Shown here: one piece after another, positions 4,277 through 64,000 of the stretch
Position numbering within the stretch: position 1 is the first letter of the stretch
How the letters are laid out: each line of letters starts with the position of its first letter
Assembly: GCF_003591175.1 (NCBI RefSeq)
Contig: NZ_QYYG01000003.1
Location: 124,001 to 188,000 of the forward strand
Length of the DNA: 64,000 bases
Source of the DNA: Serratia inhibens
Lineage (GTDB): Bacteria > Pseudomonadota > Gammaproteobacteria > Enterobacterales > Enterobacteriaceae
Direction: 5' to 3'
Position numbers and translations under genes: made by a program
The notes under the pieces: generated by a model
Told to the model about the DNA's origin: nothing
The model's input: the letters and a program-made list of their open reading frames with translations, nothing else
Databases searched by the model: none

Positions 4277-4591
4277 CTACGGCTTCCCCAGAAACCCATC
4301 GGCTTCCTGAACCACTGCCTTTTGGGTCGCCCGCTGGTAAAGGCACAGCGCTTTGCCCGGTTTGTTCTTCATAAACGGCTGCGGATAGCGCCCGCTGATC
4401 AACAGCGCCGAGTAACCGACGGCGTCATCATAATGAATGATCGCCCCGGCGGCTTTGGCCGCTTTCAATCCGCTGGCCTTCAGGCAGGCAGCCTGCAGCG
4501 CTTTATCCCCCTTGGCCCAGGCGGCTTCGGACGAGGCAGCCGCATTGAAGGCGGTGATGACGGCGGCAAACAGGATAATGATTCTGAGCAT
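4277..4591 (-). CDS. Small exported protein of unknown function
   Basis: A 104-residue protein with a clear signal peptide (MLRIIILFAAVITAFNAAAS, cleavage near residue 20). The mature part of about 84 residues is alanine- and lysine-rich in its first half and holds two cysteines (near residues 35 and 82) that could form a periplasmic disulfide. No family is recognised. It is convergent with yncE and divergent from the ligase gene at 4847, so it is probably a single-gene unit. The Shine-Dalgarno-like GGAGAG before the ATG supports the start. Confidence 0.65.
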   Translation of the reverse strand: MLRIIILFAAVITAFNAAASSEAAWAKGDKALQAACLKASGLKAAKAAGAIIHYDDAVGYSALLISGRYPQPFMKNKPGKALCLYQRATQKAVVQEADGFLGKP

Positions 4592-4846
4592 GGCTCTCTC
4601 CGATTTATTTTGTTATCCGCAGTATATGCAGCCTTTTATTATTCAGCCATCGGACAGCCGCGTATTATTTACAGTTTTTTTATTCCGGGCAGAAATAAAG
4701 TTACGGCGTTTTTACAGACAGTTTTCAGGGGCGCGGATAACATCATTACATCGCCATTATGGCCTCACGAGACGGATGCCTCATGTGTTTATACCCTGCC
4801 TTGTTTATTATTGAACCCGCGTTTTTCATTAAGCTCGGGGGCCGCC

Positions 4847-6226
4847 ATGTATTCTAATATTATTGGCTTCAACCCTATGCTGGCGGATATTCCTGCCTCG
4901 CGGTCGCGCTCATTTCGCAAGGAAGTCGAACAGTATTTACAGCGCTATCCGGATACCGAACACGTCGATATTTATCTCAACGATCTGAATGGCCAGTTTC
5001 GCGGCAAGCGGCTGCCGGTGGCCGAACTGTTCTCGCTGGATAAGGGCTGCTATTTCCCGTTGTCGATTTATGCCATGGATCTCGGCGGGCGGGTGATCGA
5101 GGAAAGCGGGCTGGGCCAGCAGGCGGGCGAACCGGATCGCTTGTGCCTGCCGGTGCCCGGCACGCTGCGGCCCTGCGCCCGCGATCCGCAACGCCATGCT
5201 CAACTGCTGCTGACGATGAAAGATGCCGATGGCGACGCCTGCGAGCTGGAACCGCGCGTGGTGCTGCAACAGCTGCTCGGGCGGTTGCATGCCAAAGGCT
5301 ATTACCCGGTGGTGGCGGCCGAGCTGGAGTTTTATCTGCACGATCCGCAGCAACTGCCCGCCGGGGCCGGCCACAGCCCAACGCAGAGTTTTTCTGTCGA
5401 TGCGCCGGAGCGCCACCATGCGCTGCTCAATGAGATTGAGCATCAGGCCCGGTTGCAGGCGCTGCCGCTGACGGGGATCGTGGCCGAGGCCGCCTCCGGC
5501 CAGTATGAGTTGAACCTGCACCACAGCGCGCGGGTGCTGGAAGCCTGCGACCAGGTGTTGGCCCTGAAACGGCTGACGCGCCAGATGGCGGAAAAACACC
5601 ACCAGCACGCCTGCTTTATGGCCAAGCCCTGCGCGCAGGCCGCCGGCAGCGGTTTGCATTTTCATATCAGCCTGCAGGATGAACAGGGCCACAACCTGTT
5701 GGCCGGCACGCCGGGCGAGCTGAGCGCCACCATGACGCAGGTGATGGCCGGGATGCTGGCGCTGATGCCGGCCTCGATGGCGATATTCGCGCCGAATATC
5801 AATGCATTCCGCCGTTTCCGCCAGGGCATGCACGTGCCGCTGCGCGCCTCCTGGGGCCACAACAACCGCACGGTGGCGCTGCGCCTGCCCTGTGCCGACA
5901 GCGCCAACCAGCGGATCGAATACCGGCTGGCCGGTGCCGACGCCAACCCTTACCTGGCGATGGCGGCGATGCTGAGCGGCATGCTGTACGGGCTGGAGCA
6001 TGCACTGCCGCTGCCCCCGGCGGCCTGCGGCAACGGTTATGAAAACGACGACGCGGCGGCGCTGCCGCTGAGCCAGCAAGAAGCGCTAACGCTGTTCCGG
6101 CAAAGCCTGCCGCTGCGCGAAACGCTCGGCCCGGCGTTTACCGCACTGTGGCACACCTGCAAGAGCGCCGAATTGCGCCGTTTTGAAGAGCAGGTCACCG
6201 AGGCGGAAATAAGCTGGATGCTGTAA
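4847..6226 (+). CDS. Glutamine-synthetase-family ligase, PuuA-like
   Basis: A 459-residue glutamine synthetase fold enzyme, colinear with E. coli gamma-glutamylputrescine synthetase PuuA (472 aa). Shared motifs include RFPDTE-like YPDTEHVDIYLNDLNGQFRGKR near the N terminus, the metal site ELEFYL, GSGLHFHISL, and the ATP/phosphate segment ASWGHNNRTVALR followed by RIEYRLAGADANPYLAMAA. The family ligates glutamate to an amine with ATP. No other puu genes (puuB, C, D, P, R) are nearby; instead the next two genes encode an acetyltransferase and a half trehalose synthase, so the substrate may not be putrescine. The ATG at 4847 follows a GGGGG element; an open frame extends upstream but without family similarity. 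Confidence 0.8.
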   Translation: MYSNIIGFNPMLADIPASRSRSFRKEVEQYLQRYPDTEHVDIYLNDLNGQFRGKRLPVAELFSLDKGCYFPLSIYAMDLGGRVIEESGLGQQAGEPDRLCLPVPGTLRPCARDPQRHAQLLLTMKDADGDACELEPRVVLQQLLGRLHAKGYYPVVAAELEFYLHDPQQLPAGAGHSPTQSFSVDAPERHHALLNEIEHQARLQALPLTGIVAEAASGQYELNLHHSARVLEACDQVLALKRLTRQMAEKHHQHACFMAKPCAQAAGSGLHFHISLQDEQGHNLLAGTPGELSATMTQVMAGMLALMPASMAIFAPNINAFRRFRQGMHVPLRASWGHNNRTVALRLPCADSANQRIEYRLAGADANPYLAMAAMLSGMLYGLEHALPLPPAACGNGYENDDAAALPLSQQEALTLFRQSLPLRETLGPAFTALWHTCKSAELRRFEEQVTEAEISWML

Positions 6227-58849: not shown

Positions 58850-59797
58850 ATGCAAAACCGGCTGACCATCAAGGACATCGCCCGCCTGAGCGGCGTGGGG
58901 AAATCCACCGTATCGCGCGTATTGAACAACGAAGGCAGCGTGAGCCCGCAAACCCGTGAACGGGTAGAAGCGGTGATCCGTCAGCAGGGGTTTACGCCGT
59001 CCAAATCGGCGCGCGCCATGCGCGGGCAGAGCGACAAAGTGGTGGGAATTATCGTTTCCCGCCTCGATTCGCCGTCGGAAAACCAGGCGGTGCGCACCAT
59101 GCTGCCGCTGCTGTATCAGCAGGGTTACGACCCGATCGTGATGGAAAGCCAGTTTGAAACCCGCCTGGTAGAAGAGCATCTGCACGTGCTGCAACAGCGC
59201 AACGTCGACGGGGTGATCCTGTTCGGTTTCACCGGCCTGACGGCGGCCATGCTCAGCCCCTGGCAGGAAAAAATGGTGGTGCTGGCGCGCGAATACGATG
59301 GGTTTTCATCGGTTTGCTACGACGACGATGGCGCAGTCCGGCTGCTGATGGAACGCCTGCAACAGCAGGGCCACCGGCATATCAGCTATCTGGGGGTGCA
59401 ACTTGCCGATGCCACTACCGGCCTGCGCCGCCATCAGGCCTATCTCGACGCCTGCCGCCAGCAGCGGATCACCCCGAGCGTCGCCTTGGGCGAACTGAGT
59501 TACCAGAGCGGTTTTCAACTGGCCGCCGAAGTGATTGGCCCGCAGACCACCGCGCTGGTGTGCGCCTCCGACACCATCGCCCTCGGCGCCATCAAATACC
59601 TGCAACAGCAGCATATCGCCCCGCTGCAAGTCTGCGGCATCGGCAATACGCCGCTGCTTAATTTCCTGTTCCCCGAGACGTTTTCGGTCGAGCTGGGCTA
59701 CGGCAGCGCCGGGTTGCAGGCCGCCCAACAGCTGCTGGGCCAGCTCAGCGGCGAACAGGGCATCCGCCAAATCATCGTGCCCAGCAAACTCGCCTGA
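58850..59797 (+). CDS. treR: Trehalose operon repressor TreR
   Basis: A 315-residue LacI-family repressor identical in length to E. coli TreR. It begins MQNRLTIKDIARLSGVGKSTVSRVLNNEGSVS, followed by the conserved KSARAMRGQSDKVVGIIVSRLDS and QGYDPIVMESQF of the trehalose-6-phosphate domain. It represses treBC; mgtA is divergent as in E. coli. No treB follows: the next genes are the bacteriocin locus. The start codon has no clear ribosome site and touches the PhoP box. Confidence 0.93.
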   Translation: MQNRLTIKDIARLSGVGKSTVSRVLNNEGSVSPQTRERVEAVIRQQGFTPSKSARAMRGQSDKVVGIIVSRLDSPSENQAVRTMLPLLYQQGYDPIVMESQFETRLVEEHLHVLQQRNVDGVILFGFTGLTAAMLSPWQEKMVVLAREYDGFSSVCYDDDGAVRLLMERLQQQGHRHISYLGVQLADATTGLRRHQAYLDACRQQRITPSVALGELSYQSGFQLAAEVIGPQTTALVCASDTIALGAIKYLQQQHIAPLQVCGIGNTPLLNFLFPETFSVELGYGSAGLQAAQQLLGQLSGEQGIRQIIVPSKLA

Positions 59798-59948: not shown

Positions 59949-59968
59949 TACTGGTCAAACATACAGTT
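59949..59968. promoter_or_regulatory. LexA (SOS) box of the bacteriocin locus
   Basis: TACTG-GTCAAACATA-CAGTT has the CTG-N10-CAG core of a LexA box. It lies 131 bp before the tail-fibre-like gene in the 302-bp gap after treR, which otherwise holds only a weak G/C hairpin just after treR (59799-59814). Confidence 0.75.
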
Positions 59969-60099
59969 ATTTATTGTATGTTCCAGCGGTTTGGCAGCAC
60001 ACGGAACGTGAACACCGATAGCCATTAGCCAGAATGGGCGGAAGGATACCGGATGCTGTTAGCCATCAAATAACAGAGTGTCAAAAAGGAAGATTCATC

Positions 60100-61233
60100 A
60101 TGGCTGAAGAAAAGAAAAATGCTCAGGTGCTTAACGGCATTAATGAAGACATCACTGAACTGAAATCACTGTCCACATTGCGCAAACGCGTTGTCAGTGA
60201 CGGTGAGATTGTCTCCAAATCACCAAACGGTTTTCGTCTGGCAAACGGCAATGCCGGCGTAATCTTGCGTAATGATGGCAAAGATTTTTACGCCCTGAGC
60301 ACACCGGACGGGCAGGCGCAGGACGGGCAGTGGAATACGCTGCGCCCCTTCTCCTTCAACCTCTCTACCGGCCGCGTGTCGCTGCGTAACGGCGTGGATG
60401 TCTCGGGCGGCGCGCTGGTGTCGCATAACGCAGGCATTGGCGCGGTCACCACCGGCCCCGCTTCTCTTATCAGCGGGCAAACGTACGGCGCGCCGCCTGT
60501 ACATACCGATTTTACCAGCGGCAACGTCACCACCACGATGATGGTGGGGTCACGGGTTACCCCGGGTAAAGAAGATTGCGGCCTGATTTCATATCGCGAC
60601 AGACAGGGTAACTGGAACGAACTCCAGGTAAGAGCCAACGCGGAGCTTTCGGCAGGGCAACTGGTCAAGCGCAATGTGGAAGGCTGGATTGTGGCTGAAG
60701 GCAACAAGAACGTTAATAACAATGCCGACCGAACGACCTACGGATTGCGCCTCCAGGGACAAGGCAACCTGTTTGCCGAGCTTTGTCATTATGAACGTAT
60801 TGGGAATCACCATCTAATGGCACTTCGCGTTGCCAATGGCGGAGGCGACGGTTGGTATGAGTTCCGGGATAAAGGCAATGCCTATACCAACGGTGCCTGG
60901 CACAGCAGCTCAGATGCCCGCATGAAAACGGAAATCGTGAAAATTGATGGCGCACTGGAGAAGCTGGGGAAAATCAGTGGCTATACCTACCTGAAACAAG
61001 GCGTTCCGGAGGCTGGCGTAATAGCCCAGGAAGTGGAGAACGTATTACCTCAATCCGTCACCACCACCGAACTGAAATTAAATGACGGCAGCGTTCTGAA
61101 AGATGCCCGTGGAATTAATATCAATGGCGTAGTGGCACTTTTGATCGAAGCGTTAAAGGAAGAACGTGAGGCCCGGCTTGAGTTGGAAGCTCGGTTGGCA
61201 ACGCTGGAAAAAACAGGCTCCGGTGAACACTAA
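60100..61233 (+). CDS. Tail-fibre-like protein with S74 chaperone domain, upstream of the bacteriocin
   Basis: A 377-residue protein. Residues 1-70 are charged and helical; the middle (about 75-280) is a glycine/threonine-rich, beta-type stalk (NGVDVSGGALVSHNAGIGAVTTGP, WYEFRDKGNAYTNGAW) like phage tail fibres. The C-terminus has the intramolecular chaperone (peptidase S74) signature SSDARMKTEIVKIDGALEKLGKISGYTYLKQ, GVIAQEVENVLP and a terminal coiled coil (EALKEEREARLELEARLATLE). S74 domains trimerise fibres and cut themselves off, so this is probably a receptor-binding fibre. AAAAAGGAAG precedes the ATG. It is 48 bp before the bacteriocin and behind a LexA box, yet no other phage gene is present. 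Confidence 0.8.
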   Translation: MAEEKKNAQVLNGINEDITELKSLSTLRKRVVSDGEIVSKSPNGFRLANGNAGVILRNDGKDFYALSTPDGQAQDGQWNTLRPFSFNLSTGRVSLRNGVDVSGGALVSHNAGIGAVTTGPASLISGQTYGAPPVHTDFTSGNVTTTMMVGSRVTPGKEDCGLISYRDRQGNWNELQVRANAELSAGQLVKRNVEGWIVAEGNKNVNNNADRTTYGLRLQGQGNLFAELCHYERIGNHHLMALRVANGGGDGWYEFRDKGNAYTNGAWHSSSDARMKTEIVKIDGALEKLGKISGYTYLKQGVPEAGVIAQEVENVLPQSVTTTELKLNDGSVLKDARGININGVVALLIEALKEEREARLELEARLATLEKTGSGEH

Positions 61234-61281: not shown

Positions 61282-63330
61282 ATGGCCACTATAGCATACT
61301 ATAAAAATGGATCGCCTTATGATGCTAATGGGAGCGTTATTATCACCATTTTTGGTAACTCTACTCCACCGAAAAATACAATTCCGGATTCCCCTCCATC
61401 AAATGGTGGTTTGTTTGTATCTATGTTACCTCCGAACGTAGCCCCTGTTTATTTGAAGGATCGTTTAAAGGTAGAGTACATCTCTGACAAGTCACCTAAA
61501 TTTACCCCTTACGGTCAATTATCTCAGTTACAAAAAATGTTTGACGACCAAATTAGCTCTGCCAGAGATCGTGTTGTTGAGCCCGTAAGTCAGATTATTG
61601 ATCGTGTAAATTCTTTTTTTCGCGAAGTGGTTAATACTCAAACTAATACCGATGATAGGGTATCAAGTACTGAAAAAATTCTTCGCGATGCCGTTAAAGG
61701 CTTACAAGACGCCAATAATGAAGTTCAAGCGGCCGAAAGTAATGTTGTTCAGAAATATAATGCGGCAGAGAAAGCCTTGAAAGATGCAATTCCAAAATTG
61801 GGTCTTACTAATGTCTCACCTGTTGATTACGATATTATTTTAACAAGAATCCTGGAGCCAGTATCCCGTAGATATTGGGAGGAATACTCTGTAAAGCCTC
61901 GAGTAGAAGAATTCAATGCTAAACAGCGTTTGCTCGCAGCATTAGATAACATAGCGCTGGTTATTACAGATGTCCTATCAAAATCACAGTCACTGACTGT
62001 AGCTATTAATCAAGTAAAAAATGAAAGAGAAGCAAAAGCCAACGCAGAAGCCAAGGCAAGAGCCGAAGCGGAGGCTAAAGTAAGAGCCGAAGCGGAAGCT
62101 AAAGTAAGAGCCGAAGCGGAAGCTAAAGTAAGAGCCGAAGCGGAAGCTAAAGTAAGAGCCGAAGCGGAAGCTAAAGTAAGAGCCGAAGCGGAAGCTAGAG
62201 CGAAAACAGCGGAGTTAATGACCAAAGCTGGAGTAAAACCTACTCCGGTTTACACACCGGAAATGGTTAAATCGGCTCAAGCGTCCCTTGCAGCTGTCGG
62301 AGCGATGGTGCTAAATCGTGCCCCAGGGATGTTACAGCTATCAACTGCCGCCGAAGGCGTTCTCACCACTACCAGTGAGTTAGCGGGCTCAATAGCCGGG
62401 GCTGTGTGGCGAGGAGCTATTGCGTTAGCTGAGGCCGCAACCGTCAGCACCGCAGGGGCAACTGTTAGCGCTTTAGTCATGGGCTTCTGGCCCACAGAAG
62501 CAGGGAAAGGCAGCGACAAGCTTTATGGACGCGACATTGTCATGTTTGGCTTTCAGGCTAATCTAATTGCTGCCGGCAAAGTCAGCATTTCGCCGGAAAT
62601 GCACTCTGTCGACTTACCGGTCCGTGGCTCTTTAGTTATGGAGAATGGTCAGCAACAGGTCAGACTGGTTAAAACGAGTATAGGTGGCGTACCCGCGAGC
62701 GTGCCTGTTCTAAAGGCGGTACGTGATGAGAAAACCGGGCTGGATAGGATTACGCTTCCGTCGGTGGGTGGTGCTCCATCGCGAACCATCCTGATTAACC
62801 CAGCTCCGGTCGGGCCGACAGCACCTCCCCATACCGGAAACAGTTCGCCTGCCCCCGTCACGCCAGTGCATACTGGCACGACAGTAAAACAGGCTGATAG
62901 TATAGTTACCACCAGCTTCCCGGCGGATGACCTTAAAGAGCTGCAGGACTTCATCTACTGGCAACCGGATGCCACGGGCAGTGGCGTCGAGCCGATTTAT
63001 GTAATGCAGAGTGATCCTCTTGATTCGGGACGATTTACCCGCAAACAGTTGGACAAGAAATTTAAGCACGCCAGTGATTTTGGTATTGCCGATACGAAAA
63101 AAAATAGAGTAACGTTGACTCAATATCGTGATGCAGTTGAAGCACACTTGAAGGATAGAGACACTGTGGAAAAAGGAACTTATCGGCGGGAAAAGGGATC
63201 TAAGGTGTTCTTTAATACTAAAACAAACAATGTCGTCGTTCTCGATAAGGATGGCGAGTTTGTTTCTGGATGGAATTTAATTCCTGGTTCACCACAATAT
63301 AACGGATATATTAACACAGGAGTTTTATAA
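61282..63330 (+). CDS. Colicin D-type tRNase bacteriocin with pyocin S translocation domain
   Basis: A 682-residue bacteriocin. Residues 1-110 are a Gly/Pro-rich start without a recognised TonB box; 110-320 form a long coiled coil including five AEAKVRAE repeats (264-303); about 375-510 is a pyocin-S type domain (VMFGFQANLIAAGKVSISPEMHSVDLPVRGSL, GLDRITLPSVGGAPSRTILINPAP); a Pro-rich linker follows; about 555-682 is a colicin D nuclease domain (KKFKHASDFGI with putative catalytic His596, EKGTYRREKGSKVFFN, FVSGWNL). Colicin D cuts the anticodon loop of tRNA-Arg. Its TAA overlaps the immunity ATG (TAATG). SOS control is likely from the upstream LexA box. No lysis gene is seen. Confidence 0.85.
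   Translation: MATIAYYKNGSPYDANGSVIITIFGNSTPPKNTIPDSPPSNGGLFVSMLPPNVAPVYLKDRLKVEYISDKSPKFTPYGQLSQLQKMFDDQISSARDRVVEPVSQIIDRVNSFFREVVNTQTNTDDRVSSTEKILRDAVKGLQDANNEVQAAESNVVQKYNAAEKALKDAIPKLGLTNVSPVDYDIILTRILEPVSRRYWEEYSVKPRVEEFNAKQRLLAALDNIALVITDVLSKSQSLTVAINQVKNEREAKANAEAKARAEAEAKVRAEAEAKVRAEAEAKVRAEAEAKVRAEAEAKVRAEAEARAKTAELMTKAGVKPTPVYTPEMVKSAQASLAAVGAMVLNRAPGMLQLSTAAEGVLTTTSELAGSIAGAVWRGAIALAEAATVSTAGATVSALVMGFWPTEAGKGSDKLYGRDIVMFGFQANLIAAGKVSISPEMHSVDLPVRGSLVMENGQQQVRLVKTSIGGVPASVPVLKAVRDEKTGLDRITLPSVGGAPSRTILINPAPVGPTAPPHTGNSSPAPVTPVHTGTTVKQADSIVTTSFPADDLKELQDFIYWQPDATGSGVEPIYVMQSDPLDSGRFTRKQLDKKFKHASDFGIADTKKNRVTLTQYRDAVEAHLKDRDTVEKGTYRREKGSKVFFNTKTNNVVVLDKDGEFVSGWNLIPGSPQYNGYINTGVL
62071..62190 (+). 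repeat. 24-bp tandem repeat, five copies, inside the bacteriocin
   Basis: Five head-to-tail units of 24 bp encode AEAKVRAE. The units are nearly identical (one G/A change in the first), with imperfect units on both sides. They lengthen the coiled coil by about 12 nm if fully helical and can change number by slippage. Confidence 0.95.
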
Positions 63331-63602
63331 TGAGTCTAAAGTTAATTGACTTGGCCCAAAGACTAATATCATCACAATTAACTGCTGATGATTTCGAGTC
63401 ACAATTTTTTAAATTATGGAGAGAAGAAGGGAAGGCAGGACTGTTAGCCAAAGATAGCAAAGATGTTGGTGAGTGTGCATCTGAGATTTTTATCCTTGCT
63501 GACTGCTATACTTCCAATCCAGATCGAAGAGAAAGTGAATTGGACGCTGATGGGTTAAAGAAAGAAGTCAAAGCCACCTTGGAAAAATTCAACCTGCTTT
63601 GA
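63330..63602 (+). CDS. Colicin D-type immunity protein
   Basis: A 90-residue helical, acidic protein: LKLIDLAQRLISSQLTADDFESQFFKLWREE at the start and LDADGLKKEVKATLEKFNLL at the end. It matches the colicin D immunity protein ([20 protein letters not shown] at the start, NGLKVEVRSILEKFKL at the end) in length and pattern. It blocks the tRNase by binding its positively charged active-site face. Overlap with the toxin stop (TAATG) couples their synthesis. A terminator follows. Confidence 0.88.
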   Translation: MSLKLIDLAQRLISSQLTADDFESQFFKLWREEGKAGLLAKDSKDVGECASEIFILADCYTSNPDRRESELDADGLKKEVKATLEKFNLL

Positions 63603-63638: not shown

Positions 63639-63669
63639 GCCCAATAAACTCTCGTTTATTGGGCTTTTT
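63639..63669 (+). terminator. Terminator of the bacteriocin operon
   Basis: GCCCAATAAAC-TCTC-GTTTATTGGGC, a perfect 11-bp stem followed by five T residues. Confidence 0.93.
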
Positions 63670-63818
63670 CATTAATAGCGTATTTATCTATGCCACTCAA
63701 GGTCGCCCTTCGTAGCCACCCCAATAGGTGGCAACGGCGGAATCCAGCAGGATCTTCCGTTGTTTTTGCGGGTTATCTGCCGAATGTTTGCGGTTGATAA
63801 ATATCCACTTCTGCCCAC

Positions 63819-63999
63819 TTCACTCAGGAGTTCAGGGCTACGGAAAAAGGGACATACCTACTTATTAAGCATTCAAAGATATTTTTTAACCCTAAAAAAT
63901 AATGTTATTGTAGACAGTAATGACAACAACCTCGTATCAGGATGGAGTTTGAAAAAGATAGTCAGCAATACCAAAACTACGTTGGAAAAGGAGTTTTAA
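63819..63999 (+). pseudogene. Frameshifted C-terminal fragment of a second colicin D-type toxin
   Basis: Two frames together give EKGTYLLIKHSKIFFNPK, then, after a shift in a run of six A residues (63894-63899), NNVIVDSNDNNLVSGWSLKKI. Aligned with the intact toxin (EKGTYRREKGSKVFFNTKTNNVVVLDKDGEFVSGWNL) this is clearly the last third of a colicin D domain; loss of one A would restore the frame. The upstream catalytic half is absent. The end AAAAGGAG (63986-63993) is a ribosome site for a gene, presumably a matching immunity gene, starting just past the window. Confidence 0.78.
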
Positions 64000-64000
64000 G

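What the first reader, a model, noticed from the sequence alone, without database searches (positions are those of the whole stretch)
63819..64000. Orphan second toxin tail with a one-base frameshift and a ribosome site at the edge
The remnant shares EKGTY, FFN and VSGW motifs with the intact toxin but differs in sequence, so it is not a simple duplicate. One A in a six-A run breaks the frame. A strong ribosome site at the very end predicts a second immunity gene outside the window. This is the toxin/immunity cassette pattern known for contact-dependent and pyocin systems, suggesting past replacement of the cytotoxic domain, and possible protection against a rival bacteriocin.
Basis: partly seen in the sequence, partly recalled or inferred. 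Interest (0 to 1): 0.6.

Follow-up and report, generated by a model that had tools for sequence, protein, structure and literature searches.

The report
Bacteriocin toxin remnant before immunity gene
A broken tail of an old bacteria-killing toxin sits in front of an intact immunity gene in Serratia, one layer in a small stack of toxin/immunity cassettes that probably records past weapon swaps and may still protect the cell from rivals; similar arrangements are known from other bacteriocins.

Summary
One base beyond the window (64001-64273) lies an intact 90-codon colicin D-type immunity gene, imm2 (PF09204, 57.1 bits, cut-off 22). The tail is real, with corrections. Its first ~25 bases belong to a stray 3' fragment of the neighbouring Exc2-type lipoprotein gene, fused to the last ~50 codons of a colicin D-type killing domain. 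Homology runs through three successive frames, so there are two frame breaks, not one, and the half with the catalytic histidine is absent, so the frame does not decide activity. Further on lies a third module, an intact orphan killing domain plus immunity gene, which a close relative carries on its full-length toxin at the same site. The locus is a three-layer stack: active toxin with immunity, dead tail with immunity, orphan cassette with immunity. Relatives carry up to six modules mixing tRNase-, DNase- and rRNase-type domains. Precedents: the pyocin S6 remnant with a protective orphan immunity gene in P. aeruginosa PAO1, and orphan CdiA-CT/CdiI arrays. A new member of a known kind; the layered, mixed stack at a soluble-bacteriocin locus is the interesting part. 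Expression and protection by imm2 are untested.

The parts
59951..59966 (.). LexA-like palindrome about 150 nt before the fibre-like gene; probable SOS control of the operon
   Evidence: Conserved in place in 8 of 9 aligned relatives including this one (2 of 11 loci tried were dropped because the start was not found); by itself not above chance in the locus, 5 sites found against 5.1 expected
60034..61233 (+). Tail-fibre-like protein with C-terminal Peptidase_S74 chaperone domain, first gene before the bacteriocin
   Evidence: PF21446 and PF13884; phage tail fibre families
61282..63330 (+). Intact bacteriocin, 682 aa: Pyocin_S domain plus colicin D-type killing domain CT1 (about 63043-63327)
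   Evidence: PF06958 132.7 bits and PF11429 56.7 bits; colicin D in PDB, E 2.1e-122
62836..63047 (+). Linker: first copy of a 212-bp perfect direct repeat; second copy precedes the orphan domain CT3 at L005:4592-4803, outside the window
63330..63602 (+). imm1, immunity gene of the intact toxin (TAATG overlap)
   Evidence: PF09204, 58.3 bits
63639..63664 (+). Intrinsic terminator after imm1
   Evidence: fold z-score -6.7
63661..63845 (-). Second, partial copy of the 3' end and flank of the Exc2-type lipoprotein gene, of foreign origin
   Evidence: 86.5% to the resident copy over 163 bp, 89.2% to L043 over 186 bp
63843..64000 (+). Remnant of killing domain CT2 (positions 43 to the end), homology in three successive frames, no catalytic His; directly followed outside the window by intact imm2 (64001-64273), then orphan CT3 and imm3
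63988..63993 (+). Ribosome site AAGGAG of imm2, inside the remnant

Best explanation
The feature is the fossil of an earlier killing domain (CT2) of the resident Serratia bacteriocin, kept because the immunity gene behind it (imm2) is useful and has its ribosome site in the toxin tail. A newer cassette, CT1-imm1, entered from another Serratia lineage: one side anchored in the conserved Pyocin_S linker, the other side joined through a few shared bases, carrying a piece of the donor's lipoprotein gene into CT2 and cutting off its catalytic half. CT3-imm3, furthest downstream, is the oldest layer. Shown: the anatomy, the lost catalytic half, the open imm2 frame, the divergent lipoprotein fragment, the perfect linker repeats, and a same-site relative with CT3-imm3 on its full toxin. 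Inferred: the route and order of events, that imm2 is expressed, and that it protects against bacteriocins with a CT2-type domain.
For: imm2 intact and in PF09204. Fusion point between lipoprotein fragment and toxin tail, with about 4 shared bases; fragment 86.5% to the resident copy, so not a recent internal duplication. Linker copies identical over 212 bp, killing domains diverging right after. L043 has CT3 99% and imm3 98% on its full toxin directly before the lipoprotein gene. Parallel cases: in G016 a 25-residue CT3 tail before an intact imm3, behind a DNase-type toxin; in G007 a 76-bp deletion in an old domain whose immunity gene differs from that of G006 by 5 synonymous and 0 non-synonymous changes. 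12 of 13 N-truncated killing domains are followed by a full-length immunity gene. An intact toxin with an immunity protein 70% identical to imm2 exists in G002.
Against: Expression is unproven: a strong terminator follows imm1 and no promoter-like site was found on the + strand between it and imm2. dN/dS of imm2 against its nearest relative is uninformative, synonymous sites being saturated. The remnant is too short to assign its type: its first piece is nearer to the L040 domain (78%) than to that of G002 (72%), and its second piece nearer to CT1 (56%) than to G002 (50%). The 12-of-13 count is anchored on immunity genes, so domains that lost theirs are undercounted. Broken immunity genes occur (L047, L112). 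How the linker came to be duplicated perfectly is not resolved.
Confidence: 0.7

Rival explanations
1. The remnant and imm2 are neutral debris of recombination at a hotspot; imm2 is open only because the event is recent.
For: No promoter-like site found before imm2 and a terminator in front; broken immunity genes exist elsewhere (L047, L112); selection on imm2 itself could not be measured.
Against: The remnant has two frame breaks and a truncation while 90 codons of imm2 are open. Orphan immunity genes elsewhere change mainly at synonymous sites (G007/G006 5:0; orphan imm3 of G016 against imm3 here, omega 0.09), although those branches include time before orphaning. In PAO1 such an orphan gene protects.
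Confidence: 0.2
2. The modules are a reserve for switching: recombination between the 212-bp linker repeats could put CT3-imm3 back on the main toxin.
For: Perfect linker repeats in the same reading frame; CT3 is complete for PF11429; orphan cassettes in relatives carry linker pieces. Proposed for CDI.
Against: A simple switch would lose imm1 and imm2, a cost noted for CDI by Poole et al.. It does not explain why the CT2 tail is kept. No population data.
Confidence: 0.25
3. Sequencing or assembly error: the tail belongs to a full second toxin gene.
For: Frame changes at A-runs are typical of some sequencing errors (general knowledge); reads were not available.
Against: The upstream half of the domain is replaced by a lipoprotein-gene fragment, not merely out of frame; there is a second frame change; similar tails before immunity genes occur in other genomes.
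Confidence: 0.03

Closest known systems
Pyocin S6-type remnant plus orphan immunity gene downstream of pyocin S2 in P. aeruginosa PAO1 (PMC4905994; abstract and passages seen)
   Same: A 3' remnant of a killing domain before an intact immunity gene, downstream of a different active S-type bacteriocin; a further orphan PF09204 gene is present too.
   Different: There the remnant is an rRNase domain and the orphan gene was shown to protect; here it is a colicin D-type domain, fused to a lipoprotein fragment, with a third intact cassette behind it, and protection is untested.
Orphan cdiA-CT/cdiI modules of CDI systems (PMC3150448; passages seen)
   Same: Detached toxin tips with immunity genes in arrays behind a full toxin gene; tips lacking start signals; relatives carry the same tips on full toxins.
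   Different: CDI toxins are contact-dependent CdiA proteins marked by VENN; here the main toxin is an S-type/colicin-like bacteriocin and the shared region is the Pyocin_S linker.
Tip replacement model and polyimmunity loci of Zhang et al. 2012 (PMC3482391; passages seen)
   Same: They read strings of immunity genes behind full toxins as remnants of former tip replacements that put a new immunity gene ahead: the model adopted here.
   Different: Stated for classical polymorphic toxins; here there are same-site relatives with other states at a bacteriocin locus.
Chromosomal nuclease bacteriocins of Serratia with interchangeable DNase and tRNase domains (PMC5536347; passages seen)
   Same: Same genus, colicin D-like group, domain exchange inferred.
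   Different: In the passages seen, orphan modules are not described ('orphan' and 'cassette' have 0 occurrences in the main text).
Usp with three downstream Imu genes in E. coli (PMC3917654; listing only)
   Same: A bacteriocin-like nuclease followed by several immunity genes.
   Different: Whether toxin tips precede the Imu genes was not looked up.

Membership tests
Colicin D-type tRNase domain (PF11429), for the remnant | Residues essential for activity, K608, H611, D614, S677 (list in PMC3482391) | tested here: not met
   Homology starts at position 43 of the 95-residue domain. H611, placed by motif spacing in the alignment at residue 596 of the intact toxin, lies before that; only the VSGW part with S677 remains.
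Colicin D-type tRNase domain (PF11429), for CT1 and orphan CT3 | Score over the curated cut-off | tested here: met
   56.7 and 51.3 bits, cut-off 25. tRNA cleavage itself not tested.
Colicin_immun / ImmD (PF09204), for imm2 | Score over the curated cut-off, full length | tested here: met
   57.1 bits, cut-off 22, profile 1-87 of 88
Colicin_immun / ImmD (PF09204), for imm2 | Neutralises a colicin D-type domain | not testable with these tools
   Needs an assay
Orphan toxin-tip/immunity module (as in Poole et al.) | Detached tip lacking a start, behind a full toxin, followed by an intact immunity gene, with relatives on full toxins | tested here: met
   Order and frames; relative with an immunity protein 70% identical beside a full toxin in G002
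Orphan toxin-tip/immunity module (as in Poole et al.) | Orphan immunity gene expressed | not testable with these tools
   No promoter-like site found on the + strand before imm2; no RNA data
CDI system (CdiA) | Main toxin is a CdiA-type secreted protein | tested here: not met
   Pfam families over cut-off in the main toxin: Pyocin_S and Colicin_D only
Polyimmunity locus in the sense of Zhang et al. | Immunity genes never interrupted by toxin genes or cassettes | tested here: not met
   Toxin tips lie before imm2 and before imm3; definition

The most novel reading that the evidence does not exclude
The treR-treB site of Serratia is a time-layered archive of bacteriocin weapons. New killing-domain/immunity cassettes of any nuclease chemistry are added at the toxin end through the shared Pyocin_S linker, with the far end joined by microhomology inside the previous domain. 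Older domains thus lose their catalytic side first, and their immunity genes stay expressed as a cumulative shield, so that the order of modules can be read as the order of past arms-race events.
Probability: 0.35. Interest if true: 0.65.

Novelty: new member of a known kind. Interest (0 to 1): 0.42.

Why it matters
It is a worked example, with same-site relatives in other states, of how a soluble bacteriocin changes its killing domain while keeping the immunity gene of the one it gave up. If the orphan genes are expressed, such stacks would help predict which strains resist which bacteriocins, which matters for microbial competition and for bacteriocins as narrow antibiotics.

Tried and rejected
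Searches for a source of imm2: no DNA match of remnant plus imm2 in plasmids; 58 plasmid records by protein, all below 60% identity; one phage record at 38%; in 394 genomes drawn from the order, nothing above 40% outside the window's own genome (G002, with 70%, was not in that draw). A genome-contig scan with imm2 confirmed no relative among 89 pattern matches; as it also missed G002's relative, if that genome is held there, this is weak evidence.

LexA: a consensus with up to 3 mismatches gave none, a loose pattern only chance numbers; alignment of relatives made one site credible. Selection on imm2: uninformative. Rejected as names: CDI system and strict polyimmunity locus (see membership test); sequencing error making a full gene (see rivals). 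Literature: ten answered searches; two gave no paper. Only open-licence papers are held, so I do not claim that such stacks are absent from print.

Full report
What was asked. The window is G000:C23:124001-188000 of a 362,774-base contig, so the prediction could be checked. Nearest relatives of the toxin with names are Serratia; the host is taken to be a Serratia near S. plymuthica.

What is there. On the + strand (window position = L005 position + 59800): treR (58850-59797); a tail-fibre-like protein (60034-61233); a 682-residue bacteriocin with Pyocin_S and Colicin_D domains (61282-63330); imm1 (63330-63602); a terminator; the reported feature; then, outside the window, imm2 (L005:4201-4473), a linker with a complete orphan Colicin_D domain CT3 (4547-5086), imm3 (5083-5349), an Exc2-type lipoprotein gene on the other strand (5459-5872) and treB. 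The names treR and treB are recalled from sequence and gene order; no family search was run on them. The three immunity proteins score 58.3, 57.1 and 40.5 bits for PF09204, cut-off 22. imm2 is 47% identical to imm1 and 44% to imm3 and matches the solved colicin D immunity protein (E 4.5e-8).

The remnant. Bases 63661-63845 are a second, partial copy of the junction between an immunity gene and the lipoprotein gene's 3' end: 86.5% identical to the resident copy over 163 bp and 89.2% to L043 over 186 bp. At about 63843, across about four shared bases, it passes into the toxin tail. The tail aligns with other colicin D-type tails in three successive frames and ends in a stop overlapping the imm2 start; AAGGAG lies 7 nt before that start. 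Homology begins at domain position 43 of 95. The catalytic His611 of colicin D (passage of PMC9990079) falls, by motif spacing in the alignment, on residue 596 of the intact toxin, and this part is absent from the remnant.

The third module and a relative in another state. The linkers before CT1 (62836-63047) and before orphan CT3 are identical over 212 bases, after which the domains diverge (63% protein identity). In L043 (contig of the same length as the S. plymuthica NBRC 102599 record L092) the treR-treB site holds a toxin with CT3 (99%) and imm3 (98%) directly before the lipoprotein gene. Its linker differs from both copies here at several positions, so the two copies here share a more recent origin.

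The same site in relatives. Of 30 genomes held for the genus, 24 have a lipoprotein match; 11 have one at 74% identity or more, all 11 next to treB. Of these 11, two are empty (G004, G005: treR next to the lipoprotein gene), four hold one full toxin and immunity gene (G015, G018, G020, G023), four hold more modules (G000 three, G006 two, G007 six, G016 two) and one (G017) holds a cassette without a full toxin. In the four multi-module sites the module next to the lipoprotein gene is of the CT3/imm3 type, and the heads differ: two distinct colicin D-type variants, a DNase type and an unassigned type, X. The last two modules of G007 correspond to the two of G006. In G007 the older domain has a 76-bp deletion, while its immunity gene differs from that of G006 by 5 synonymous and 0 non-synonymous changes. 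In G016 a DNase-type toxin and its immunity gene are followed by the last 25 residues of CT3 and an intact imm3.

Elsewhere. G618, of another genus, has a full colicin D-type toxin and immunity gene followed by four tandem units of toxin tail plus immunity gene. Enterobacter wuhouensis (L101) has a 23-residue tail before an intact immunity gene. Among 72 distinct immunity genes in 53 loci, 13 follow a killing domain aligned only from beyond position 8, and 12 of the 13 are full length. The table is anchored on immunity genes, so domains without one are undercounted; the other classes are rough outside Serratia, since my queries miss some linkers; and in L036 the loss is an internal deletion with the linker kept. 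Broken immunity genes occur (L047, L112). PF09204 genes occur in 12 of 30 genomes of the genus, in tandem in 5 of the 12, and in 22 of 392 genomes drawn from the family, tandem in two, G000 and G618.

How it most likely works. A new cassette arrives on foreign DNA and pairs with the conserved linker; its far end joins by a few shared bases inside the older domain. The new weapon with its immunity gene stands in front, and behind it an old weapon without its catalytic part but with an untouched immunity gene, whose ribosome site lies in the toxin tail. The divergent lipoprotein fragment between imm1 and the CT2 tail is what such an event would leave. These steps are inferred from end products. 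Expression of imm2 is unproven: imm1 ends in a strong terminator (z -6.7), and no promoter-like site was found on the + strand between it and imm2. For one CDI orphan, co-transcription and a functional immunity protein were shown (passages of PMC3150448); in PAO1 an orphan pyocin S6-type gene protects (PMC4905994).

Known or new. The closest precedent, in PAO1, has the same arrangement with another nuclease type. Orphan arrays are established for CDI and Rhs, Zhang et al. state the replacement model, and domain exchange in Serratia bacteriocins was inferred by Sharp et al.. A recent survey finds many orphan immunity genes on E. coli plasmids (PMC12546727, passages). The feature is a new member of a known kind. 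In my ten answered literature searches I did not come upon a description of layered, mixed stacks at a soluble-bacteriocin locus, but most hits were seen only as listings.

Verdict. Observation partly confirmed, with corrected limits and frame count; interpretation supported, protection untested. Interest 0.42: tidy and testable, with clear precedents.

Noticed in passing
60034-61233; also loci: A phage-tail-fibre-like protein with a Peptidase_S74 domain precedes the bacteriocin gene here and in most related loci: matches in 17 of 29 loci and 19 of 26 (overlapping sets, some partial matches). Its role with a soluble bacteriocin is unclear.
   Followed up: partly
59951-59966: LexA-like palindrome about 150 nt before the fibre-like gene, kept in place in 8 of 9 aligned relatives: the operon is probably SOS-induced.
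   Followed up: partly
L036:9404-10643: A killing-domain/immunity type (X) whose tip has no Pfam, NCBIfam or PDB match beyond the Pyocin_S/colicin D linker, and whose immunity proteins have none over a cut-off; it recurs in many loci. The Sharp et al. paper has a non-HNH DNase type that it could belong to; not tested.
   Followed up: partly
L083:2642-4526 (G618): Four tandem units of about 400 bp, each a short in-frame colicin D-type tail plus an immunity gene, behind a full toxin; the immunity proteins differ mostly in the middle.
   Followed up: partly
62006-62224: 24-base tandem repeats in the toxin's central coiled coil (seven overlapping copies in register, 65-100% to the reference), with TolA-like similarity; probably length-variable.
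   Followed up: no
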